Virus record (IMG/VR): IMGVR_UViG_3300047335_000068
Coordinates: 1-59,809 of that record
Direction: 5' to 3' (one strand)
Origin: a virus
Length of the DNA stretch: 59,809 bases
Both the position numbers and the translations under genes were made by a program. Of this stretch, positions 19,235-44,915 are shown piece by piece (position 1 is the first letter of the stretch; each line of letters starts with the position of its first letter). Below the pieces are notes generated by a model that ran no database searches, was not told where the DNA came from, and saw only the letters and a list, made by a program, of their open reading frames with translations.

Positions 19235-20575
19235 TCAGGGTTTGTCGTCGGCCGGCAGGCGATTGGCGTCGCCGTCGCCGCCTTCGGCGGGCGTTCCCGT
19301 CGTGTCGCTGCCGACGCCGCCGGGCGGGGCCGGGCTGTCTTTCGGCTCGTAGTCGAGGCCAGCCATGTTGGTCGGCTTCTGCACCGCGTCGCCGTCGGGC
19401 ACCCGTTCCAGGTCCTCCTGGGCACGCGCCTCGTTGACGGACATCCAGGGGCCGCCGACGGCCTGGCGGTAGGCCGTATAGCGGGTCTGGATGTCGGCCT
19501 TAGTGAAGTGCGTAAAATCGAAATCGAAATAGAGGTCACCGCCGTCGAGCTGGAAAAACTTCTCCAGCTTGGAGGTCCACCGGCTGCAGTACCCCGACAC
19601 GACGTCGTTCAGATATTGCTGGTTCTGCTGCACCATCGAAGGACCCGAGCTCTCGCCCTCGATCCCGAGCTTGTAGGGCGGCACGCGAAACGCGCGGGCC
19701 GCGTCCCGCAGTTGGAAATTGCGGCTTTCGATGAACTGGCTGTCCACCATGGTCAGACCCATCGGTTGCCATTTGAGACCCTGCTCCAGGACCGCCGTCG
19801 CGCCGCTGTTGCGCGGTCCGGTCTTGAAGGCCTGCCACTCCGACTTCAGCTGGTTGCGCGCCTCGGCCGCGAGCTTCTGGTCGGTCGAGAGCACGCCAGA
19901 CGGCCGCGCGCCCTGGCCGGTGAACCGCGCCTGGTGACGCTCCATCCCCATCGCGAGCCCGATCGACTCTCGGATCAACGTGATGCGGCTTGAGCCGAGG
20001 AGCGAGTTCCACTGCGACAGCCAGCGCAGGTGCAGCACGTCTTCCGACGGGACCATGATCGGCACCTCGGCAAGCACCGCCATGTCGTGCAGGCCATTGC
20101 GGGTCACGAAATAGAAATATTCGCCGGTCGGCGCTTCCCAGAGCGCCACGCGATCAGGATGCACCGGCACCAGGTATTGCACGCGGCCGCGGAAGTCCCT
20201 GACCGCCACCGAATAGGCGTTGCCGCGCAAAACAAGCGCGGACTGCATCATCTCTTTCCATTCAAATGCGGTCTGCCAGTCATTTGGGTTACGCATCAGA
20301 CCGTGGAGGTAGCTGTCGGTCGCGACCTCACGCCCGCCCTTGGTATTATGACGGCAGATGTCGAGCGGGATCTTGGCCAGGTCTTCGGCCAGGATCGACA
20401 CGCACGCCATCACGGCAACGTGGCTCATCGATGTGAAAGAGTTCACAGCGACGCCGGAATCGCCCCACTCGATCCCTTCTCCGAACCAGTCGTAGAACTC
20501 GGAGCCGACAGAGCCGGTCGCGGGTCCGCTGCCGGAGCGCGTGAACGCGCCGGCGATCCTGGACCACAGGCTCAC
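19235..20575 (-). CDS. Portal protein, HK97 family
   Basis: A 446 aa protein. I use the GTG at 20575, which overlaps the terminase stop (GTGA). The sequence upstream in this frame is out-of-frame terminase. Family motifs are clear: FTSMSHVAVMACVSILAEDL, LMRNPNDWQTAFEWKEMM, LVLRGNAYSVAVRD, LGSSRITLIRESIGLAMGME, and the FRVPPYKLGIEG region near residue 320. The end is Pro/Gly-rich and acidic. It forms the dodecameric DNA entry channel. Confidence 0.94.
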   Translation of the reverse strand: MSLWSRIAGAFTRSGSGPATGSVGSEFYDWFGEGIEWGDSGVAVNSFTSMSHVAVMACVSILAEDLAKIPLDICRHNTKGGREVATDSYLHGLMRNPNDWQTAFEWKEMMQSALVLRGNAYSVAVRDFRGRVQYLVPVHPDRVALWEAPTGEYFYFVTRNGLHDMAVLAEVPIMVPSEDVLHLRWLSQWNSLLGSSRITLIRESIGLAMGMERHQARFTGQGARPSGVLSTDQKLAAEARNQLKSEWQAFKTGPRNSGATAVLEQGLKWQPMGLTMVDSQFIESRNFQLRDAARAFRVPPYKLGIEGESSGPSMVQQNQQYLNDVVSGYCSRWTSKLEKFFQLDGGDLYFDFDFTHFTKADIQTRYTAYRQAVGGPWMSVNEARAQEDLERVPDGDAVQKPTNMAGLDYEPKDSPAPPGGVGSDTTGTPAEGGDGDANRLPADDKP

Positions 20576-22269
20576 AGCACGAGCAGCCCGCGCCCGTCGG
20601 CGTACGGAGACTCCTCGGCTCCGGCCAGGCTGCGGCCGACCGCCATGATAGCCGCGACGATCGGGTCGATGCGCTCGATACTCCTCTCCTTGTCCGGCTT
20701 CTGATTGCCGGCGGGATCGGTCCGCACCGTCACGTTCGAGGCGCACCAGGTCGCGATGGGATCGCCGCCGTGTTGCAGCTCACCGGCCAGGAGCTTGCGC
20801 ATGAACTCCGCGGTCGGTGGGCCCATGCTGAAGAACCCCTGTCCGAACTCGACGCAGTTCACGTTCTCGTCCGTCAGGTTGCGGATGATCTCGCCAGCGA
20901 AGGTGCGGTCGAAGGCGAGGTCCGCGATGTCGTAGATGCGGGCGAGCTCCAGGATGCGATGCTCGATGAACTTGAAGTCCGTCGTGTTGCCCTCGGTAGC
21001 GACGAGGTGTCCCAGGTCACGCCAGACGAGATAGGGCGCGCGGTCGCGCCGCGCCCGCTCCACGATGTCGTCCTCCGGGCACCAGTGGAACCAGAGGATC
21101 TGCCAGCGTTCCCCGGGGTCGACCGGCGGGAACAGCAGCGCCAGCGAAGATAGGTCGTTCACGCGCGCCAGGTCGAGGCCGCCATAGCAGCGGCGGCCAC
21201 GAAGCGCGGCCACGTCGATCGCGTCCGACCCGCGCGCCCAGAGGTCCATGTCCAGCCAGCGGGTCAGCTGCTGGGTCCACTGGTTCAGCCGGAGCCTGCG
21301 GATGCTGTTCTGCTTGCCGGGCATCTGGCGCGCCAGCGCCACCTCGGCCCGCAGGTCCTCGATCTTGAGCAGATGTCCGAGCGAGGGGTTCGCCTTGTGC
21401 CAGGCCCGCTCATCCTGCCAGTCGTCGTCGTCGTCGACGGTCGCGATGAAGGCAAACCAGCGATCCGCGACCTCGAAAGGCACGGTCTCTTCGAGGACCT
21501 TGATCGAGAACTCCCAGTGCTGGAAGCAGATCGAATGCCGGTTCACGCCAGCGGTCGTCGTCTCGTACATCAGCGGCTCAAGGCGGGCGCCCATGCCGGT
21601 ATCGAGCTTCTCGATCACCTCCGCAGAGGGATGCTCGTGCAGCTCGTCCACGAGCGCCACGAACACATTCAGGCCGTCCATCTTCGACGCATCCGCGGAC
21701 AGCGGCCGGAACCAGCTGGCGGTGTCGATCACCGAGAGGTTGTTGGTCGTCGAGACGATGCGGCGCCGCAGCGCGGGCGATGCCGCCCGCATCCGCTCCG
21801 CTTCCGAGAACACGATCCGGGACTGCTCGCGCGTCGTCGCGGCCGCATAGATTTCGGCGCCAGGCTCCTGCTCGTCGACGAGCGCCTTGAGACCAATCCC
21901 GGCCTCGATGGTCGATTTCCCGTTCTTGCGCGCGGTCGAGACGAAGGCTGTGCGGAAGCGCCGGATCCCGCCGAGCTTCCAGCCGAAGATCGATCCGACC
22001 ACGAACTGCTGCCAGGACATGAGCTCGAACGGCGTGCCCGCGTACTGGCCCTTGCTATGGCGCAGGACCGCCGGGAAAAACTCGATCGCCCGCATCGCTG
22101 TCGGCAGGTCCCAGCGGAGGCCGCGCGAGGGACCTCTCACCAGGTCTGCGATGTGCCGCTCGGCCGCGAGGCGCACGAGCTTGCCGGTCGGCAGGTCGCC
22201 ACGGCAGACGGCCTCAGCGTAGGCTCTAACGGGGTCTGGCGGCGCCGTCGGCCTACGCGCGCGGGCCAC
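20572..22269 (-). CDS. Terminase large subunit (HK97-like TerL)
   Basis: A 565 aa packaging motor. The Walker A-type loop is STARKNGKST (residues 111-120), the Walker B is VALVDELHEH (D208, E209), and the C-terminal nuclease domain starts with GGLDLARVNDLSSLALL near residue 350 and has an Asp in IADLAFDRTFAG. It starts with GTG at 22269, overlapping the small subunit by 17 bases. The family (Terminase_1-like) normally pairs with P27-type small subunits, as here. Confidence 0.95.
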   Translation of the reverse strand: MARARRPTAPPDPVRAYAEAVCRGDLPTGKLVRLAAERHIADLVRGPSRGLRWDLPTAMRAIEFFPAVLRHSKGQYAGTPFELMSWQQFVVGSIFGWKLGGIRRFRTAFVSTARKNGKSTIEAGIGLKALVDEQEPGAEIYAAATTREQSRIVFSEAERMRAASPALRRRIVSTTNNLSVIDTASWFRPLSADASKMDGLNVFVALVDELHEHPSAEVIEKLDTGMGARLEPLMYETTTAGVNRHSICFQHWEFSIKVLEETVPFEVADRWFAFIATVDDDDDWQDERAWHKANPSLGHLLKIEDLRAEVALARQMPGKQNSIRRLRLNQWTQQLTRWLDMDLWARGSDAIDVAALRGRRCYGGLDLARVNDLSSLALLFPPVDPGERWQILWFHWCPEDDIVERARRDRAPYLVWRDLGHLVATEGNTTDFKFIEHRILELARIYDIADLAFDRTFAGEIIRNLTDENVNCVEFGQGFFSMGPPTAEFMRKLLAGELQHGGDPIATWCASNVTVRTDPAGNQKPDKERSIERIDPIVAAIMAVGRSLAGAEESPYADGRGLLVL

Positions 22270-22720
22270 TCAGAAAGCCCTCGGCGGGGTCCGCAGCGCC
22301 GGGCGGGTCGCCGGCCTTGATGCGTGACCGCGCCGAGCCCGAGAGCCCGATTTCGCCGGACATCTGGCGCAGCTGGTCCATGGCGCGGTTGGCGGCGGCC
22401 AGATAGGGCGAGTACATCGGGTAGCCGTTGGGCGACTTCACGATGAGCCCGGTCGTCTCAAGCATCCGCTCGCATTCGCACCAGCGGCCCCAGGCCTGGC
22501 AGTAGGCCGTGACGACGGCGCGATCCAGCTGGGCGATCAGGCCCACCTCCTGGAGCAGCACGGTGACGCGCTTCCACTCCTTCAGCGCCTCGCCCTTCAG
22601 GATCGAAGGCGGGTCCGGGATCTGGACGCGCGGCTTGGCCTCGCTCTCGTTAAGCCGCTTTCTTCCGGGGTTTCCGGTGATCAGCTTGAGCACGGTCGGC
22701 TTCCGTGGCGGTCCCGGCAT
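22253..22720 (-). CDS. Terminase small subunit, P27 family
   Basis: A 155 aa protein, PGPPRKPTVLKLITGNPGRK at the start and DRAVVTAYCQAWGRWCECER in the middle, which is the P27/YqaS pattern. I use the ATG at 22720 because GAGGAAA stands just before it; a GTG at 22732 is the alternative. It recognises phage DNA for packaging. The gene overlaps the ParB-like gene by 71 bases, a long overlap for this genome. Confidence 0.92.
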   Translation of the reverse strand: MPGPPRKPTVLKLITGNPGRKRLNESEAKPRVQIPDPPSILKGEALKEWKRVTVLLQEVGLIAQLDRAVVTAYCQAWGRWCECERMLETTGLIVKSPNGYPMYSPYLAAANRAMDQLRQMSGEIGLSGSARSRIKAGDPPGAADPAEGFLSGPRA

Positions 22721-23456
22721 CGGTTTCCTCACTCGCTAAAGCGCGGCCTGCGAGCTCGGCCATCAGGCGGAGTGCGACGGCGGTGTTGTGGACATTCTTC
22801 GCGGCCTTGACCGCGATCAGGGTCTCGAAGAACACGCCGAAGTCGGCATAGAGCCCAACCAGGCGCTCGCGGCCTTGTTTCGATTTCGCGATCTTGTCGA
22901 GCCACTCGGAAAAGACCGGGCCGTCGCCGGGCAGGAAGGAGATGGTCAGCTCCTCGTAGAACGGCGCCTGCACATGGAGCGCGGAGATGTCGAGCTCTTC
23001 GATGTTGAAAGCGTCGTCGGTGAGGCCCGAATATTCCTTCCAGTTGAAGTCGAGCTCGTCATAGAGCGACCGCAAAATGCTGGGATCGTCCTGGCCCACG
23101 ATCGCGTTGTGGCTCAGCTGGAGCGCCACGAACTGCTGATGCGTCAGAGGGTTCGTCACCTCGATCACATCGCTCTCGACGATCCCGGCCTTGATCGCGG
23201 CCGAGACGCGGTGGTTACCCGACACCACCACCAGGTCGTCACCGCGCCGATAGACCAGCGGGAAACTCGTCAGGCATCCATCCCGTCGGATGTTCTCGAC
23301 GAGACGGTTAAACTGCGGCCCCTTCATGAACCGGGCGTTCTTTTCGAGCAGCTTGAGGCTGGACAGCGCCACCCGGATGACGCGCGTTTGCAAGGAATCG
23401 CTGGAACCAGTCGGCGTAGATTTCGGCGGGAGTTTGGCGGCGGACCTTGCTGGCAT
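22650..23456 (-). CDS. ParB/Srx-fold protein of the modification module
   Basis: A 268 aa protein. Residues 26-120 form a ParB N-terminal-like domain: VALSSLKLLEKNAR, then FNRLVENIRRDGCLTSFPLV and VVVSGNHRVSAAIKAGI. There is no DNA-binding HTH of partition ParB. Fused or neighbouring ParB/sulfiredoxin-fold proteins are known in phage base-modification gene sets, where some act as ATP-dependent enzymes. The gene lies next to the methyltransferase-like gene, overlapping it by 149 bases. AAAGG stands before its ATG. Role in modification is inferred from context. Confidence 0.8.
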   Translation of the reverse strand: MPARSAAKLPPKSTPTGSSDSLQTRVIRVALSSLKLLEKNARFMKGPQFNRLVENIRRDGCLTSFPLVYRRGDDLVVVSGNHRVSAAIKAGIVESDVIEVTNPLTHQQFVALQLSHNAIVGQDDPSILRSLYDELDFNWKEYSGLTDDAFNIEELDISALHVQAPFYEELTISFLPGDGPVFSEWLDKIAKSKQGRERLVGLYADFGVFFETLIAVKAAKNVHNTAVALRLMAELAGRALASEETDAGTATEADRAQADHRKPRKKAA

Positions 23457-24669
23457 AGTACAGCCTTTCCGGGAACCGCTTCATCAGCTCGAAGACGCCA
23501 CGATATTTCATGCTCACCGGGCGCGTCGTGTAGGCGGTGGTGTAGACGTTCTCGATCCGCTGCATCAGCTTGATTTCCATGCGCGACAGGATCGTCTCAG
23601 ACGTCGCCAGCATGATAATCAGCTTGGACAGGCGGGTCTTCGCGCCCATCGAGAAGTCGCACAGCATGTAGATGCCGTTCTCGCCGTACTTCGCCCGGAT
23701 GAAGATGAACCCGCCGGCGAGCCTGCCATCGAGCATCACCAGGAAATTGGCGATCCCGTTCGTGTGCTGGATCTCCTTGGCGAGATGGCTGTCCTTGAGG
23801 AAGTTCATCTGGGCCGAGGTCGCGTTGATGATCTCGACCTTGGAGCTCGGCGTCAGAGCGTCAACGTCGCAGGGCGTGTAAGCGAAAGCCTGGGCCGCGC
23901 GCGGCAGGCGCTTGACCGAAGAGAGCGCGCGATCGGCATACGTGTAGACCGGCTTCAGCTGGCCGTAGAACACGGTCGCGGGGTCGTGCCGGGTCAGCTT
24001 GCGCTCGACCAGGACGCAATAGCGGACGCCCATCTCCTTGAGCTCGTCGATCCAGCTCTCGAGCTCGGCCGGGTTCCAGAGCCGATAGGCGGGGCGCTGC
24101 CAGTCGGCATTTTCGTCGACGAAGCGATACAGCCGCTCATAGTCGTTCTTGTATGTCGGCGGGAACGCCGCGACACCGCCTCCAGCCGCGAAAGCCCGGC
24201 CTGCCTGGTCCCGGAAATCTCCGCCATGGAAACTCGCGACCTTCAGCGGCTCGATGTAGCGCTCGAGGCGCAGCGCCGCGATCGTCAGGAACTCAGCGAA
24301 GCGCTCCTGGTAGTGGGCAAAGTGCGACACCGCGAAAGCGTTCTTGCCGCGGTACTTCGCCATCTCCTGGGCGATCTGAATGGCGCCACAGCGGAACAGC
24401 AGCGGCTTGCCTGCCAGGTGCTCCTCGACGAAGGCAAAGCGCCCCTTGAACGTCATCGGAAAAGGCGCGCCGGTCACCAGGGCTCCAAGCGAGCAGCTGA
24501 TCAGCGACACGTCGTTGGCATGGACGCGGACGGTCGGATGCACGTCATGCACGGCGCGGTCGAAGCGGAAAGAGCCGGAGCACCCGACGAAGACGTCCCG
24601 CCATTCGGTGAAGGGCACCGTCCGCGTGACCTGCTCGATTGCTTGCTTGGGAACGGCGCCGAAGAACAT
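23308..24669 (-). CDS. Putative antirestriction adenine methyltransferase / GNAT-like DNA modification protein
   Basis: A 453 aa protein. Residues 1-230 look like an adenine methyltransferase: a glycine loop VGCSGSF at 28-34, ND at 52-53, and FPPTYKNDY at 169-177 in the place of the catalytic DPPY. Residues 285-405 look like a GNAT/Mom-type acyltransferase: IANFLVMLDGRLAGGFIF, then KYRGVFELMKR. The last 45 residues are Arg/Pro-rich and overlap the ParB-like gene. Phage relatives are known as putative antirestriction adenine methyltransferases. This is the first gene of the late run. The domain split is my reading. Confidence 0.7.
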   Translation of the reverse strand: MFFGAVPKQAIEQVTRTVPFTEWRDVFVGCSGSFRFDRAVHDVHPTVRVHANDVSLISCSLGALVTGAPFPMTFKGRFAFVEEHLAGKPLLFRCGAIQIAQEMAKYRGKNAFAVSHFAHYQERFAEFLTIAALRLERYIEPLKVASFHGGDFRDQAGRAFAAGGGVAAFPPTYKNDYERLYRFVDENADWQRPAYRLWNPAELESWIDELKEMGVRYCVLVERKLTRHDPATVFYGQLKPVYTYADRALSSVKRLPRAAQAFAYTPCDVDALTPSSKVEIINATSAQMNFLKDSHLAKEIQHTNGIANFLVMLDGRLAGGFIFIRAKYGENGIYMLCDFSMGAKTRLSKLIIMLATSETILSRMEIKLMQRIENVYTTAYTTRPVSMKYRGVFELMKRFPERLYYASKVRRQTPAEIYADWFQRFLANARHPGGAVQPQAARKERPVHEGAAV

Positions 24670-24881: not shown

Positions 24882-25298
24882 GTGATGATCAAGACTTCGT
24901 CGTGGTTTACCAAGTTGCCGAGCGATCATTTTCGGATCGGCATTTCACGCGGTCAGCCACGCAATGCGGCGGCCGGGTTTAGGATGTATCGCAAGCTCGC
25001 GCCTGGTCCCTGGTTTCACTCAGTCGGGGTCGACGAGTATCGTCAACGGTATCAGGCCGAAATTCTCGATCGCCTCGATCCAGCCGAGGTCGTGCGCGAG
25101 CTTGAGGAGCTCGCCGTGGGGCGTCATCCGGTTCTGCTCTGCTACGAAGCGCCGAACGGCTCCCAGGGGTTCTGTCATCGGTCTCTGGTCTCGCTCTGGT
25201 TCGCCAGCACAATCGGTCTCGTCGTGCCCGAGTTCGGTTACGAGCGCTGCGCGCACGACCAACACCCGCTGCTGCCAGGGATAGCGAAGGCCGTCTAG
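24882..25298 (+). CDS. DUF488-like protein
   Basis: A 138 aa protein (GTG at 24882, ATG directly after; AGGA at 24871-24874). The C-terminal half has HPVLLCYEAPNGSQGFCHRS and WFASTIGLVVPEFGYE, with the paired CYE and CHR motifs of DUF488-like proteins. Function of the family is unknown. It is a single plus-strand gene at the early/late border, followed by a strongly structured element. Confidence 0.75.
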   Translation: MMIKTSSWFTKLPSDHFRIGISRGQPRNAAAGFRMYRKLAPGPWFHSVGVDEYRQRYQAEILDRLDPAEVVRELEELAVGRHPVLLCYEAPNGSQGFCHRSLVSLWFASTIGLVVPEFGYERCAHDQHPLLPGIAKAV

Positions 25299-29968: not shown

Positions 29969-30247
29969 ATGAAAACTTTCAAGCGTGCATCAGCGGCCAA
30001 AGCCGCGGCCAACGGGCTGCCCATCATCCGCATTGGCCTCGGCAAAAAGTCGGTCTGGATCGTCACCGACGAGCCCGATCTGGTCGGCGTCGGCCTCACC
30101 GAGGTCTCGGTCATCGCGCCCGATGGCTGCGTGACCGGCTTCGTCACCCTCCGTCACCTGGACCGGCTCGGAAACGCAAATTGGGCCAGCTGCGGTGAAC
30201 GCCAAAGCGGCGGCCGGTCGGCCTTCCCGGCGGGGAGCCGGTCATGA
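29969..30247 (+). CDS. Small protein upstream of ParB, unknown
   Basis: A 92 aa basic protein starting MKTFKRASAAKAAANGLPI, with SVWIVTDEPDLVGVGLTEVS in the middle. The last 20 residues are Gly/Ser/Arg-rich. Its stop overlaps the ParB start (ATGA), so the two are co-translated. No family recognised. Confidence 0.6.
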   Translation: MKTFKRASAAKAAANGLPIIRIGLGKKSVWIVTDEPDLVGVGLTEVSVIAPDGCVTGFVTLRHLDRLGNANWASCGERQSGGRSAFPAGSRS

Positions 30248-31131
30248 CGAACGTTACGTCCCAGGATGCAATCCAGACGCTTCCGATCCACCTAATCTCG
30301 GGCGATCCGGGCCAGCCCCGCAAGATCTTCGACAAGGCCGGCCTGCGCGACCTCGCCGCTTCCATCAAGGCCGACGGGCTGCTCCAGCCGATCACAGTCC
30401 GCGCCGTCGAGGGCGGCTACATGATCGTCGCCGGCGAGCGCCGGTGGCGCGCCTCGCTGCTCAACGAGGCCAAGACGATCCGCGCCGTCGTCATCGTCCC
30501 GCGCGACATTGCCGACGTGCGGGTCAAGTCCATCATCGAAAACGATCAGCGGGTCGATGTGACGCCCATGGAGCAGGCCCGGTCCTACCAGTCGCTGATG
30601 GACGAGACGGGCATGACCGTTGACGAGCTCGCGGCCCGGCTCGGCAAGCCGCCGCACCGCATCACCGAGCGCATTGTCCTGCTGCGGCTCAAGCCCGAGC
30701 ATCAGGCCATCCTGGACAGCGGCAACCTCAAGCCGGGCGAAGCCTACGAGATGGCCCGGCTCGATCCGCGCGGCCAGGACGTGCTGTTCAACGCGATCCG
30801 CACCGGCAAGGCCAAAAGCTACGCCGACGTGAAGGCCATGGCCGAGGCGATCCTGAACGCGGCCGCGCAATCGTCCTTCCTGTCGCCAGAGTCCGACCCG
30901 GCAAAGTCCGAGGCCGATCGGCACCACGTCAGCCAGTTCGAGGCCGGGGTCGACAAGCTGGCAGCCTTCCTCGCCTCCAGCATCAAGGACAACAAGATCG
31001 TGGCGGTGCGCCGGGTCAACCCGGATCGGGCGGAGCATCTCGCGAACATGATGGCCGCGATGCAGAAGGACATGCGCCGGATCGAGGTCGCGCTCCGGGA
31101 AGTCGCGGTGCAGCTGGAGCTCGCGTCATGA
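30244..31131 (+). CDS. ParB/RepB/Spo0J-family protein
   Basis: A 295 aa protein with the whole ParB core: IHLISGDPGQPRKIFD, LRDLAASIKADGLLQPITVR, YMIVAGERRWRASLLNEAK (residues 60-80, the GERRxR CTP-binding box), then an HTH around GMTVDELAARLGKPPHRITE. The C-terminal part is helical. No ParA gene exists anywhere in the window, so plasmid-style partition is unlikely by itself. It could act as a nucleoid-like DNA organiser or regulator, or use a host ParA. Confidence 0.88.
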   Translation: MTNVTSQDAIQTLPIHLISGDPGQPRKIFDKAGLRDLAASIKADGLLQPITVRAVEGGYMIVAGERRWRASLLNEAKTIRAVVIVPRDIADVRVKSIIENDQRVDVTPMEQARSYQSLMDETGMTVDELAARLGKPPHRITERIVLLRLKPEHQAILDSGNLKPGEAYEMARLDPRGQDVLFNAIRTGKAKSYADVKAMAEAILNAAAQSSFLSPESDPAKSEADRHHVSQFEAGVDKLAAFLASSIKDNKIVAVRRVNPDRAEHLANMMAAMQKDMRRIEVALREVAVQLELAS

Positions 31132-34670: not shown

Positions 34671-35921
34671 TCATTTTCGCCTCCAAACCCGCCTTGAATC
34701 AGCTCCTCGGCCCGTCACCGTCGACACCCAGCCCAACTTGCGTAGGACGTCTGTCGCCCGGACCGTGGCTTTGCGGTCATGCCGCTCGCGCGGAACGCCG
34801 AGACCGTCAGACAGCGCATTGGCCGTCGTGCATTCAAGACGGTCGAACAACCAATCGGCCAGAAGCGGCTGCCAGGTATCCTCTGTCAGGCGGCTGCGTT
34901 GCATCTCGACGGCCGCGACCGCGATCTCCTCGTCATCCAGCCAAATGCTCTCGCCGTTAGCCTCACGAACCGCGGCCTCCGCCCAGAGCTGGTCACGATT
35001 GACTTCAACCCAGGTTTTGTCTGCCGTTTTGCATTCGATCGGCCAGAAGCGGCGGTTTCCGCTCACATCGCGCAGATAGTCCGTGCGATTTGTCGTCCCG
35101 CAGACGACGCACTGGCGCTTGACCCCGATGAACCCGCGCCCGTACGGCACGCGGTATCGATCCACGGCACGCGACAGGAACGCTTTGACGGTCTCCACGT
35201 CGGCGCGGATGATCTGATCGATCTCAGGGAACTCGGCGGCCCAGACGCCGTGCAGCGCCATCGCGGCGTCGCGGGAGCCTATGTCGGCTGGCATCCCGTC
35301 GGTGAAGTAGCTGGCGCCGAACAGCGCGGCGATCGCGGCACTCTTGCCGAGGCCCTGGTCGCCCTCGAAGATCGGCATGTGGTCGTATTTGCAGCCGGGC
35401 TCGCGCACGCGGCGCGCGGCCGCGAGCAGGAACTTCGTGCCGACGGCGCGGGCATAGGCAGAGTCCGGCGTGTCGAACACGTTCGTCAGCCAGGTGTTTA
35501 TGCGCGGCTTCCCGTCCCAGGCCAGCCGGGCGAGATAGTCGAGGATCGGATGAAAAGGGTGCTGGCGGGCGACCGCGCCCAGCGCGCGCTCCACCACGCC
35601 GACCGTGAAGCTCGCGGTCCAGACGCGCTGGAGATACGACAGGATCATCTGGACGTCGTCGTCTTCCCAGGGGCGCGGGAACGGGCCAGGCGCGGGGCGC
35701 GAGGTGTCGTGCGAAAACGGCGGCGAGCGCATCAGCACGCCACGGCCGAGCATGTCGTCAAAGCCGAGGAGGCCGCGGAGCTCAGGCTCCAGGTCGAGCA
35801 GGATGAGCACGTTCGCCGTGTTCGCGAGCACCTGCTTCTTCTCGCCACGCGAGAGCAGCCCGATGAACCGCATGTCGGGGCCGCCTGGCGGATTTCCCCC
35901 GAAGGGCACGACGTTGCTCAC
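34671..35921 (-). CDS. VapE-like replication helicase/ATPase
   Basis: A 416 aa protein. Walker A loop EGDQGLGKSA at residues 186-195; downstream GVWAAEFPEIDQIIRADVET, SRAVDRYRVPYGR and CVVCGTTNRTDYLRDVSGNR fit the VapE (virulence-associated E) superfamily 3-like helicases. The end (DTWQPLLADWLFDRLECTT) is a winged-helix-like tail. The GTG start overlaps the prim-pol stop. It works with prim-pol to open the origin and unwind DNA. Confidence 0.9.
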   Translation of the reverse strand: MSNVVPFGGNPPGGPDMRFIGLLSRGEKKQVLANTANVLILLDLEPELRGLLGFDDMLGRGVLMRSPPFSHDTSRPAPGPFPRPWEDDDVQMILSYLQRVWTASFTVGVVERALGAVARQHPFHPILDYLARLAWDGKPRINTWLTNVFDTPDSAYARAVGTKFLLAAARRVREPGCKYDHMPIFEGDQGLGKSAAIAALFGASYFTDGMPADIGSRDAAMALHGVWAAEFPEIDQIIRADVETVKAFLSRAVDRYRVPYGRGFIGVKRQCVVCGTTNRTDYLRDVSGNRRFWPIECKTADKTWVEVNRDQLWAEAAVREANGESIWLDDEEIAVAAVEMQRSRLTEDTWQPLLADWLFDRLECTTANALSDGLGVPRERHDRKATVRATDVLRKLGWVSTVTGRGADSRRVWRRK

Positions 35922-36730
35922 GCGGGCCGCCGGCCGCCGGCGCGCAAGCCCGATCTGATCGTGTCCTGGGCCTCCTTTCGCGGGAGGCCGGCATGGAGCG
36001 CGGCATCGAGCAGCGAGCGTTCGACGGTCGACTTGTCGAGCTGGCCAGCGGCCACCAGGGTGCCCAGGTGATACGAGCGGCGGTTCAAGAGATCGTTGCG
36101 GCCGCCGTCGCCACCAAAGCGCACCGCGTCGATCGCGCGGTAGAGCGCCTTCATGGCGCGCTCGCTGGTCATGATGTAGGGCGGCGCAGGCTGCTCCGGG
36201 AGCGGCGCCAGGAGCTCGGCAAGCCAGGCTGGGATCGCGGGCGGAGGCGTCTCCCAGGGCGGCACGCGCCAGGTGTATTCGCCGCCTGAGATCGGATGCC
36301 GGCTCGGCGGGATCATCACCGCCTGGCGTCCACGGTGGGGATCGAGCCCGGGCGCGGGCACCCCGGATTTGCCACGGAGCTTTTCACCCGCATGGCGGAA
36401 AAACAGCGCGGCGCCGCCAGAACCCCCCGATTTCGTCATGGGGCGCTGCGGCAAGCATCCATGACGATCGACGAGCGCTGAGAGCGCCGCGAAACCATCA
36501 TGGGCGTGCAAGCCGGGCCTGTCCACGTCGAGGGCGAAAAGGTGCGAGGATCCTGTGACCACGCGCCAGTTGCACCGCCGGAAGCGGAAGGCCCACTCGT
36601 CGATGGTGGCAAGGTCACTGGTCGCGGCGTCGGTTGCACCAGGGAAGCAGCCAGCTTTACTCGCGGTGCTCGCGGGGTAGACTTTCCACCCGAGGAGCGC
36701 CACCCGTTCAATGTCGGCCGGGATGGTCAC
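35918..36730 (-). CDS. Bifunctional DNA primase/polymerase (prim-pol)
   Basis: A 270 aa archaeo-eukaryotic primase-type protein. The metal-binding DxD is in LFALDVDRPG (D68, D70). TKSGGSGGAALFFRHAG gives the second motif, and RQAVMIPPSRHPISGGEY followed by TW the third. It starts with GTG at 36730 and overlaps its neighbours by four bases on both sides. Directly upstream of VapE. It should make primers for replication; elongation would need host polymerase. Confidence 0.92.
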   Translation of the reverse strand: MTIPADIERVALLGWKVYPASTASKAGCFPGATDAATSDLATIDEWAFRFRRCNWRVVTGSSHLFALDVDRPGLHAHDGFAALSALVDRHGCLPQRPMTKSGGSGGAALFFRHAGEKLRGKSGVPAPGLDPHRGRQAVMIPPSRHPISGGEYTWRVPPWETPPPAIPAWLAELLAPLPEQPAPPYIMTSERAMKALYRAIDAVRFGGDGGRNDLLNRRSYHLGTLVAAGQLDKSTVERSLLDAALHAGLPRKEAQDTIRSGLRAGGRRPA

Positions 36731-42901: not shown

Positions 42902-43140
42902 GTCGCGAGGGATTGGCACGTCAGGAGCTCATCAGGCGTGACGGCGTGGCCGCAGGCGACGCAGGCATATTTCCCATTATTCGCGCCGTAGTGGTCGCGG
43001 AGCAGCCACCAGCCCTTGTCGTGCGGGCAGCATAGGTCGCAGTTTGTCATGTGGTTCTGGTCATAGGCCCAGACCCGCAAGCCAAGGCACCTCGGGCAGT
43101 CGCCGAGCACCTCATCGGGCCCGACCGGCGTGGTCGTCAT
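42898..43140 (-). CDS. Small Cys-rich protein
   Basis: An 80 aa protein with LGDCPRCLGLRVW, HMTNCDLCCPHDKGWW and YACVACGHAV, eight Cys in all, mostly CxxC pairs. Probably binds two zinc ions. The TGATG junction ties it to the hydrolase gene upstream. Unknown role. Confidence 0.65.
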   Translation of the reverse strand: MTTTPVGPDEVLGDCPRCLGLRVWAYDQNHMTNCDLCCPHDKGWWLLRDHYGANNGKYACVACGHAVTPDELLTCQSLAT

Positions 43141-44846
43141 CAGTACAGCGTCTTGACGGCGATCGCGGCCGTCGCCCCGGTGCTGAAGAGGCTGGCCGGG
43201 GTTCCGAAGCGGACGCCATCGACCTCCACGTAATCGACGTAGAGGTTCCGATCGGTCGCAGGCGTCCCGGCATAGGCGTCATTCAGGAAGGTGACCTCGA
43301 CCGTGTGGCTTCCCGCGCCATAGCTGCCCGCGAAGGTGAAAGCCTGCCATTCGCCCCAGTTATGGACGGCGCTCACCGAGACGCCGGTCGCGACCAGTTT
43401 TCCGTCCACCGCGATCGACGCCTGGGAGTCTCCGTCGTAGAGGTCGGCGGACAGAACGATGGTGAATACGCTCTGCGCCAGGGCGGTCGTGCTCATGATC
43501 CAGCCAATCGGCGGCATAATGAGCTCGACGCCAGCCGACCCGTCGAGGGGCTGCGTCCACCAGACCCCGGCGCTGTTCAACTGGTCGAGCTGGGTGCCGG
43601 TCCAGAAGAGCGTGACGACGCCGGCCGAGGAAGAAACCACGACGCCGTTGCGCGCGATCTGGGCCGCCGAGGTGATGTTCCAGGCATTTCCCTCGTCGTC
43701 ATAGATCGTGCCGCCTGCCCCGTTGACCTGGGTTCCGGCGGCACTGGGCGCGTGGGCCACCTGGGGTTGCGCTGCGGCGCCGAAATACTGTGCCCAGGCC
43801 GCGGCCTCCTTGGGCTTGCCAGCGGTCGCCACCGGCGTGAAGGCGTACTCCCCTCCCCCGTTCGAGTCCCAGATGCTGACAAAAGCGACATCCGCGGTCG
43901 AGGCGCCGAGCGTGCTGGCAAGCCAGGACACGAAGGTCGGGTTGTCCGTAAGGCCTGCGCCGTCCCCTGACGCGCCCGCGCCGGTTTCGCAAATGGCGAT
44001 CGGCTTTCCCTGGGCGGCCGCGAAGGAGATGAGCTCCGCGAGCGACAAGCAGCTCCCGCCACTGGCGTCGAGTGAACTCTCGGTCGATGCGGGATAGCTG
44101 TAGTAGTGCTCCAGGTTCACCGGATCGCTGGCGAAGGTCACCAGGTTGCTGAACACCGGGTTAGGCGAATTGAGCACCTGGCCGCTCTTGGACCAGTCGT
44201 AAATCTGATTCGGCGCGCCGAACGGGTAGAGGTCGCCGTAGACATCCGCGCCAATGATGTCGACATAGGCGGCTCCCGGCCACAGCGTCACCGTCGCTTT
44301 GCCGGCAGCGGTGTCATTCGTGATGCCGGGGTTCCAGATGACGAACAGGGTCACGCCGATCGCCGCGGCCTGGGCGTGCATGACGGTGTAGATGTGGCGA
44401 AAGGCCGCGATCCATTGCGCCTGGAGCGAAGCATCCGAGCCGACGAAGCCCGGGGTCGAGCTCAGGTTCATCTCGACGCCGGGCCGCCAGTACTGGGTCT
44501 TGTAACCCGCGTTGGCCCAGCCGGAGACCATGCCCTGCAATGCGGCGTCATAGGCGCCGCTGACGAAGTTCCCGAGGATGGTCTGGGCCGAGGGCGCGCC
44601 TGCATAGCTGGAGCCCATCGGCAATGCGATCATGGGCGTGGTCGTCTGCCAGCCTGGCGTCGACGAAAACTCGCCAACGGAATAGCTGTTGCTGCCGCTC
44701 AGGGGCTGCGGCTGGGTGTAGTCAAGGTAGGCATTGAGGATGACGGGCGGCGCGCCCATCAGCGATGTGAAATCCGCGAGCGCGGCTGCACTACCGGCAT
44801 CCTCCGGGTTATCCACGAAGCAGCCCAAGACGTACGGGGTCGGCAT
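43140..44846 (-). CDS. GH26-like glycoside hydrolase with carbohydrate-binding module
   Basis: A 568 aa protein from the ATG at 44846 (AGGAG 8 bases before). Residues 1-370 look like a GH26-type barrel: YWRPGVEMN gives a candidate acid/base E125, YVDIIGADVYGDLYP is a typical strand, and IAICETGAG gives a candidate nucleophile E287. Residues 440-560 look like a CBM60/36-type beta module (LYDGDSQASIAVDGKLVATG, NLYVDYVEVDGVRFG). No signal peptide. Far from the tail genes. It may be a virion-attached depolymerase or act at lysis. Confidence 0.7.
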   Translation of the reverse strand: MPTPYVLGCFVDNPEDAGSAAALADFTSLMGAPPVILNAYLDYTQPQPLSGSNSYSVGEFSSTPGWQTTTPMIALPMGSSYAGAPSAQTILGNFVSGAYDAALQGMVSGWANAGYKTQYWRPGVEMNLSSTPGFVGSDASLQAQWIAAFRHIYTVMHAQAAAIGVTLFVIWNPGITNDTAAGKATVTLWPGAAYVDIIGADVYGDLYPFGAPNQIYDWSKSGQVLNSPNPVFSNLVTFASDPVNLEHYYSYPASTESSLDASGGSCLSLAELISFAAAQGKPIAICETGAGASGDGAGLTDNPTFVSWLASTLGASTADVAFVSIWDSNGGGEYAFTPVATAGKPKEAAAWAQYFGAAAQPQVAHAPSAAGTQVNGAGGTIYDDEGNAWNITSAAQIARNGVVVSSSAGVVTLFWTGTQLDQLNSAGVWWTQPLDGSAGVELIMPPIGWIMSTTALAQSVFTIVLSADLYDGDSQASIAVDGKLVATGVSVSAVHNWGEWQAFTFAGSYGAGSHTVEVTFLNDAYAGTPATDRNLYVDYVEVDGVRFGTPASLFSTGATAAIAVKTLY

Positions 44847-44915
44847 TCCGGTACTCCTGCAAGGGGGCTCGGTATAGCTGAACACCCCTATCAGGTAACC
44901 TGATCGGCCGCCCGG

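What the first reader, a model, noticed from the sequence alone, without database searches (positions are those of the whole stretch)
22650..24669. Methyltransferase-GNAT protein paired with a ParB-fold protein: candidate DNA hypermodification module
The 453 aa protein has a methyltransferase-like half (VGCSGSF, ND, FPPTY) and a C-terminal half with GNAT/Mom-like character, overlapped by a ParB/Srx-fold gene without an HTH. Mom-like acyltransferases and ParB/Srx-fold enzymes both occur in phage DNA-modification sets. The pair is the head of the late run, directly before terminase, when packaged DNA would need protection. The fused arrangement may give an adenine with an added acyl group rather than simple methylation.
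Basis: partly seen in the sequence, partly recalled or inferred. Interest (0 to 1): 0.75.

Follow-up and report, generated by a model that had tools for sequence, protein, structure and literature searches.

The report
Phage MTase-GNAT enzyme with ParB partner
This phage carries a widespread, previously unexplained two-gene unit, a DNA-methylase-like domain joined to an acyltransferase-like domain plus a ParB-type partner, sitting just before the DNA-packaging genes; it most likely alters phage DNA chemically, but its methylase half has lost the usual catalytic residues, so the product is probably not ordinary methyl-adenine.

Summary
The 453-aa protein (MTG) is a two-domain fusion: Pfam DAM-like-phage1 plus GNAT-phage-like, both E~1e-39. 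AlphaFold2 (pLDDT 92) with Foldseek confirms a Dam/AviRa-type methyltransferase fold and a GNAT fold. The overlapping gene is ParB/Srx-fold, followed by overlapping terminase genes. I found the pair in phages and prophages whose records name more than ten bacterial phyla. In 62 of 62 non-redundant relatives the ParB gene is adjacent; TerL follows in 34 of 51, and a DUF488-N3-like gene sits just upstream in 26. There are two subfamilies. A gut-phage one keeps canonical methylase motifs (EPCAGAF, NPPTY). The window's has lost the motif-I Glu and has an aromatic residue in place of the catalytic Asn/Asp (F/Y/W/H in 146 of 152 aligned rows), while a glycine and acidic cofactor-site positions and a GNAT PVSMKYRG block stay near-invariant. 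Inteins sit inside motif IV in four relatives. The GNAT half is no closer to Mu Mom than to ordinary GNATs, so 'Mom-like' is not supported. Best reading: a DNA-modification module making something other than canonical N6-methyladenine. The chemistry is untested. Domains known to Pfam; paired module and motif swap appear undescribed in the papers I could search.

The parts
23308..24669 (-). MTG: 453-aa DAM-like methyltransferase-fold + GNAT-fold fusion protein
   Evidence: ORF; Pfam/PHROG; AF2 pLDDT 92.4, pTM 0.82; Foldseek
23932..24666 (-). DAM-like-phage1 domain (residues 2-246)
   Evidence: PF22555 E 4.7e-39; Foldseek AviRa 1o9h 8e-4, E. coli Dam 4rtp 2.9e-3
24568..24588 (-). motif I-like loop VGCSGSF (residues 28-34); the Glu of the Dam-type EPxxG is replaced by Val
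   Evidence: G32 152/152, C30 147/152; residue 28 V/I in 143/152, E only in the two N-subfamily rows
24511..24516 (-). motif II ND (residues 52-53), acidic residue at the end of strand b2
   Evidence: D53 151/152; strand E48-53
24151..24165 (-). motif IV FPPTY (residues 169-173); catalytic D/N position is Phe; intein insertion site in four relatives
23398..23844 (-). GNAT-phage-like domain (residues 276-424)
   Evidence: PF22559 E 3.3e-39
23497..23520 (-). near-invariant GNAT block PVSMKYRG (residues 384-391)
   Evidence: S386, M387, K388 150/152, R390 151/152
22650..23456 (-). ParB/Srx-fold partner (268 aa), no HTH detected
23208..23219 (-). GNHR nucleotide-binding motif (ParB box II equivalent, residues 80-83)
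   Evidence: S79, G80, R83 invariant in 60 sequences; H82 at least 90%
22253..22732 (-). terminase small subunit (P27 family), overlaps the ParB gene
20572..22269 (-). terminase large subunit
24882..25298 (+). DUF488-N3a-like gene, divergent neighbour, recurrent third component
   Evidence: PF22751, E 1.9e-7; recurrence

Best explanation
The MTG and ParB genes form a two-component phage DNA-modification module expressed with the packaging genes. The ParB-fold protein (nucleotide-binding motif kept, no HTH detected) loads or positions the enzyme on double-stranded DNA in an NTP-dependent way. The DAM-like half holds DNA and presents a base in a remodelled cofactor/base pocket. The GNAT half, or the two halves in sequence, attaches a group other than the methyl of canonical N6-methyladenine, making virion DNA resistant to host restriction. 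Shown here: the folds, domain order, obligate pairing, terminase linkage, motif conservation and motif swap. Inferred: DNA as the target, NTP-dependent loading, an acyl or other non-methyl product, protection of virion DNA. Which base is modified is not known.
For: Both domains assigned by Pfam and structure. ParB adjacent in 62/62 non-redundant relatives, in all 15 phage records found with MTG plus ValentiniPuff, and in 77 of 82 loci of the N subfamily, four of the five exceptions being contig ends. TerL within 3 kb downstream, same strand, in 34 of 51 with room. The ParB partner is related to the ParB domain of ParB-N6/N4-methyltransferase fusions (phrog_498, E 1e-11); in phages L298 and L299 such a fusion is encoded near, in L299 immediately before, the terminase genes. 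The literature reports ParBc genes beside phage carboxymethylcytosine enzymes (PMC12783734) and ParB folds fused to phage methyltransferases (PMC12704722). Near-invariant residues in both halves and inteins inside motif IV in four relatives point to two functional sites. The best viral structural match is a 695-aa 'amidoligase' protein aligned over 444 columns (E 7.8e-23), suggesting an amidoligase-MTG fusion, i.e. conjugation chemistry. FP_Brigit encodes a methionine adenosyltransferase about 2 kb upstream of MTG.
Against: No direct evidence that the substrate is DNA. The GNAT loop after b4 lacks the usual [QR]xxGx[GA] (RLSKL instead), so CoA binding is uncertain. Profile similarity to Dam is weak (hhalign probability 8%), and Foldseek hits are fold-level only (9-14% identity). 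Motif-I Glu and motif-IV Asn/Asp are lost in this subfamily, so the MTase half might be a non-catalytic scaffold. The amidoligase fusion could not be read as sequence, and a search for amidoligase genes in 40 MTG records found none (its controls did not ring, so inconclusive).
Confidence: 0.55

Rival explanations
1. Ordinary orphan DNA methyltransferase for anti-restriction: the DAM-like half methylates DNA; the GNAT half is only a DNA-binding or specificity domain and ParB a loading factor.
For: The N subfamily keeps EPCAGAF and NPPTY; Dam and AviRa are among the fold matches; ParB-methyltransferase fusions are common in phages (PMC12704722); a SAM synthetase lies near MTG in FP_Brigit.
Against: In the window's subfamily the motif-IV D/N position is aromatic in 146/152 rows and the motif-I Glu is V/I; the GNAT half has its own near-invariant polar block, unlike a passive domain.
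Confidence: 0.2
2. Protein modifier: the DAM-like half is a pseudo-enzyme that docks on DNA, and the GNAT half acetylates a protein (terminase, capsid, or a host factor), controlling packaging or the host.
For: Loss of canonical MTase residues; most solved Foldseek matches of the C half are amine or protein acetyltransferases; terminase linkage.
Against: Cofactor-loop glycine and the acidic residues after b2 and b3 remain near-invariant; ParB/MTase linkage in phages points to DNA; I know of no phage packaging regulator of this kind.
Confidence: 0.14
3. RNA or ribosome modifier, as suggested by the AviRa rRNA methyltransferase fold match.
For: AviRa is the best-scoring methyltransferase in Foldseek PDB (1o9h 8e-4).
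Against: ParB-type partner and packaging-operon position fit DNA better; the fold match is generic (14% identity).
Confidence: 0.06

Closest known systems
Pfam PF22555 DAM-like-phage1 / PF22559 GNAT-phage-like; PHROG 7858
   Same: Full-length match of both domains; this is a member
   Different: These are names without an assigned function; the entries as returned here do not mention the ParB pairing, the two subfamilies or the motif-IV swap
Dam / D12-class N6-adenine methyltransferases (E. coli Dam)
   Same: Fold; order of motifs I-II-III-IV; loop Gly and acidic residues after b2 and b3
   Different: Motif-I Glu and motif-IV D/N lost in the window's subfamily; fused GNAT; very low sequence similarity
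Phage Mu Mom
   Same: GNAT fold; phage; proposed non-methyl DNA modification
   Different: No profile similarity beyond that to ordinary GNATs; no Pfam Mom hit; Mom has no MTase half or ParB partner
Phage ParB-N6/N4 methyltransferase fusions (phrog_498)
   Same: Related ParB domain with a DNA methyltransferase, encoded near or next to the terminase genes in two phages read here
   Different: Fused rather than separate; canonical methyltransferase; no GNAT
CmoX carboxymethylcytosine system (PMC12783734)
   Same: Phage SAM-type enzyme with frequent ParBc neighbour; non-methyl modification
   Different: Cytosine C5 enzyme using carboxy-SAM with a separate AMP-forming ligase; no GNAT
DpdB/DndB (ParB-fold partners in bacterial DNA-modification systems)
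   Same: ParB-fold NTP-binding partner of a DNA-modifying enzyme
   Different: Unrelated catalytic partners

Membership tests
PF22555 + PF22559 (DAM-like-phage1 / GNAT-phage-like) proteins | Both profiles above their cut-offs in order | tested here: met
   134.7 and 134.8 bits against cut-off 27
GNAT superfamily | GNAT fold | tested here: met
   Foldseek to 1y9k, Naa50/Naa60, Mom and others, E 3e-4 to 5e-3
GNAT superfamily | [QR]xxGx[GA] CoA loop | tested here: not met
   Loop reads R-[LVI]-[SA]-K-L after b4; the fold stays GNAT, the motif is degenerate
Mom family (PF25680) | Sequence/profile similarity to Mom above that to other GNATs | tested here: not met
   No Pfam Mom hit at E<=1; hhalign score 24 over 24 columns against Mom versus 18-24 over about 45 columns against ordinary GNATs
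Mom family (PF25680) | Acyl-type modification of adenine in DNA | not testable with these tools
   needs nucleoside mass spectrometry
D12/Dam N6-adenine methyltransferases | Class-I MTase fold | tested here: met
D12/Dam N6-adenine methyltransferases | (D/N/S)PP(Y/F/W) catalytic motif | tested here: not met
   FPPTY; aromatic at position 1 in 146/152 rows. NPPTY only in the other subfamily
D12/Dam N6-adenine methyltransferases | Sequence profile match | tested here: inconclusive
   hhalign probability 7.8% with motif II, III and IV in register
ParB/Srx fold | ParB-N fold with GxxR nucleotide motif | tested here: met
Canonical ParB partition proteins | HTH DNA-binding domain after ParB-N | tested here: not met
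   No HTH_ParB hit; a separate canonical ParB with HTH lies at 30244-31131

The most novel reading that the evidence does not exclude
The window's subfamily is a new class of DNA-base modifier: one polypeptide in which a methyltransferase fold with an aromatic motif IV and an altered cofactor pocket works together with a GNAT domain, loaded by a ParB switch, to install an undescribed (for example acyl, carboxymethyl-derived or amide-bearing) base in phage DNA.
Probability: 0.3. Interest if true: 0.8.

Novelty: new variant of a known kind. Interest (0 to 1): 0.57.

Why it matters
Phage DNA modifications are found one enzyme at a time and many phage enzymes in databases remain unexplained. This module is widespread (phages and prophages in records assigned to more than ten bacterial phyla), its two genes are nearly inseparable, and cultured examples exist on laboratory hosts (M. 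smegmatis phages, Gordonia phages, FP_Brigit), so mass spectrometry of virion nucleosides could settle it directly. If the product is a new base it adds a chemistry and would also give a use for the ParB-fold partners whose role beside phage modification enzymes is stated as unknown (PMC12783734).

Tried and rejected
Mom-family membership: rejected after hhalign against Mom and against about 20 ordinary GNAT profiles as controls. The Mom profile was shallow (mostly Mu-like sequences; 8 of 299 Pseudomonadota genomes gave any hit), so this is a weak negative. Solved-structure search by sequence or profile for MTG: no meaningful hit. NCBIfam: no model matches MTG. Amidoligase co-occurrence in MTG genomes: none found, but the controls failed too; the amidoligase-MTG fusion suggested by Foldseek could not be recovered as DNA. 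Literature: no held paper names these Pfam families; the polyvalent-protein, jumbo-phage, Dnd, BREX and NAD-ADPr papers do not describe this pair in the passages searched. Iyer et al. 2013 (doi 10.1093/nar/gkt573) is not held. A promoter scan of the divergent region found nothing. One search was a useless query, an alignment too divergent to search, wrong handle type.

Full report
What is there. On the minus strand the window encodes a 453-aa protein (23308-24669, here MTG), a 268-aa protein (22650-23456) whose ORF overlaps it by 149 nt, then terminase small subunit (22253-22732), terminase large subunit (20572-22269) and portal (19235-20746), each ORF overlapping the previous one (annotations). 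MTG matches PF22555 DAM-like-phage1 over residues 2-246 and PF22559 GNAT-phage-like over 276-424, both near E 1e-39, and phrog_7858 of unknown function over nearly its full length. The partner matches phrog_7405 and, more weakly, many ParB families.

Structure. AlphaFold2 on a 60-sequence alignment (A3) gave mean pLDDT 92.4, pTM 0.82. Foldseek against PDB finds acetyltransferases for the C half, including phage Mu Mom (8bv8, E 7.5e-4) among many, and AviRa (8e-4) and E. coli Dam (4rtp, 2.9e-3) for the N half. The ParB partner model (pLDDT 84.9, pTM 0.55) matches ParB, Noc and sulfiredoxin, and its profile matches solved ParB sequences (7bnr 8e-5). No HTH was found by Pfam; the C-terminal helical part of the model is of mixed confidence, so absence of an HTH is likely, not proven.

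Conservation of the pair. Scans of IMG/VR and of GTDB genomes, plus four annotated phages and the window, gave 166 loci entries (with L019-L022). Among 62 representatives under about 65% identity, all 62 have the ParB-like gene adjacent, usually overlapping, immediately downstream except in the two Desulfo-type representatives where it is immediately upstream. All 15 INPHARED records with MTG carry it next door, and the sixteenth ParB record (ValentiniPuff) turned out to have a distant MTG just upstream. TerL lies within 3 kb downstream on the same strand in 34 of 51 representatives with enough sequence. Record titles name more than ten phyla, with the caution that many are metagenome bins.

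A third component. A DUF488-N3a-like gene, present in the window at 24882-25298 (+), lies within 1.5 kb upstream of MTG in 88 of 166 loci; among the 62 representatives 26 have it there (53 of the 62 have more than 1.5 kb upstream), in either orientation. Its function is unknown.

Active sites. In 152 aligned members the cofactor-loop glycine G32 is invariant and the acidic residues after strands b2 (D53) and b3 (D151) are kept in 151 each. But position 169, the catalytic D/N/S of motif IV, is F in 130, Y in 14, W in 1, H in 1, S in 4 and N in 2; and position 28, Glu in Dam-type EPxxG and in the other subfamily, is V or I in 143. The tree places the N-type members in a single clade (100/100) apart from all others. 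Wider searches of that clade gave NPPTY, NLPTY or NPPTH in 74 of the 75 members where the pattern was found, and ParB adjacent in 77 of 82 loci (some loci are the same contig fetched twice), four of the five exceptions being contig ends. The GNAT motif differs in parallel: PVSMKYRG in the window's subfamily against PEAKxxRG in the other. This is one divergence, so it suggests but does not prove that the two halves work together. The GNAT CoA loop is degenerate in both.

Inteins. Relatives L040, L063, L088 and L159 carry an insertion exactly inside motif IV, FPP[TF][YF]K|C...HN|[STC]GYE, with intein hallmarks (N-terminal Cys, TxxH-type block in most, LAGLIDADG-like WLAGMFDGEGS, C-terminal HN) (Pfam intein score weak). 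Inteins usually sit in conserved functional sites (general knowledge), so this supports motif IV as functional.

Links to DNA modification. The partner's ParB domain is related to that of phage ParB-N6/N4-methyltransferase fusions (phrog_498); in phage L299 such a fusion is next to the terminase genes and in L298 it is about 7 kb from them. Published surveys report ParB-fold fusions to methyltransferases in phages (PMC12704722) and ParBc neighbours of the carboxymethylcytosine enzyme CmoX, with function unknown (PMC12783734). The best viral structure match of MTG is a 695-aa 'amidoligase enzyme' aligned over 444 columns (E 7.8e-23), which suggests an amidoligase-MTG fusion; I could not read its sequence, so this is a lead.

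Mom. The GNAT half scores against a Mom profile no better than against ordinary GNATs. It may still work like Mom, but is not a Mom-family member by what I tested.

Verdict. 'Acylated adenine' specifically is one option among several. Simple m6A is less likely for this subfamily because the catalytic residue is gone. What appears new relative to the databases is the obligate ParB pairing, the DUF488-N3 association, the two subfamilies with opposite motif IV, and the inteins; what is known is the existence of the two Pfam domains. I found no held paper naming them, but the library lacks most subscription journals.

Noticed in passing
L040, L063, L088, L159 (MTG genes): LAGLIDADG-type inteins inserted at the same site inside motif IV of MTG relatives from Pseudaminobacter, a gammaproteobacterial MAG, a Planctomycetota MAG and a viral contig.
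   Followed up: partly
window 24882-25298 (+): DUF488-N3a-like gene, recurrent just upstream of MTG in many relatives, in either orientation; function unknown.
   Followed up: partly
window 30244-31131 (+): A second, canonical ParB with HTH (ParB_N + HTH_ParB) in the same phage.
   Followed up: no
window 43140-44885 (-): 581-aa protein with a C-terminal xylan-binding CBM60 module (E 8.5e-18), possibly a virion or tail carbohydrate-binding protein.
   Followed up: no
window 34671-36730 (-): VapE-like helicase and Prim-Pol primase encoded as two adjacent genes.
   Followed up: no
L298, L299: Heliusvirales phages carry an amidoligase and a gamma-glutamyl cyclotransferase close to ParB-N6/N4 methyltransferase fusions and the terminase; L298 also has a 606-aa protein with a C5 cytosine methylase domain.
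   Followed up: no
L021:6870-8048: FP_Brigit encodes a methionine adenosyltransferase about 2 kb upstream of MTG.
   Followed up: no
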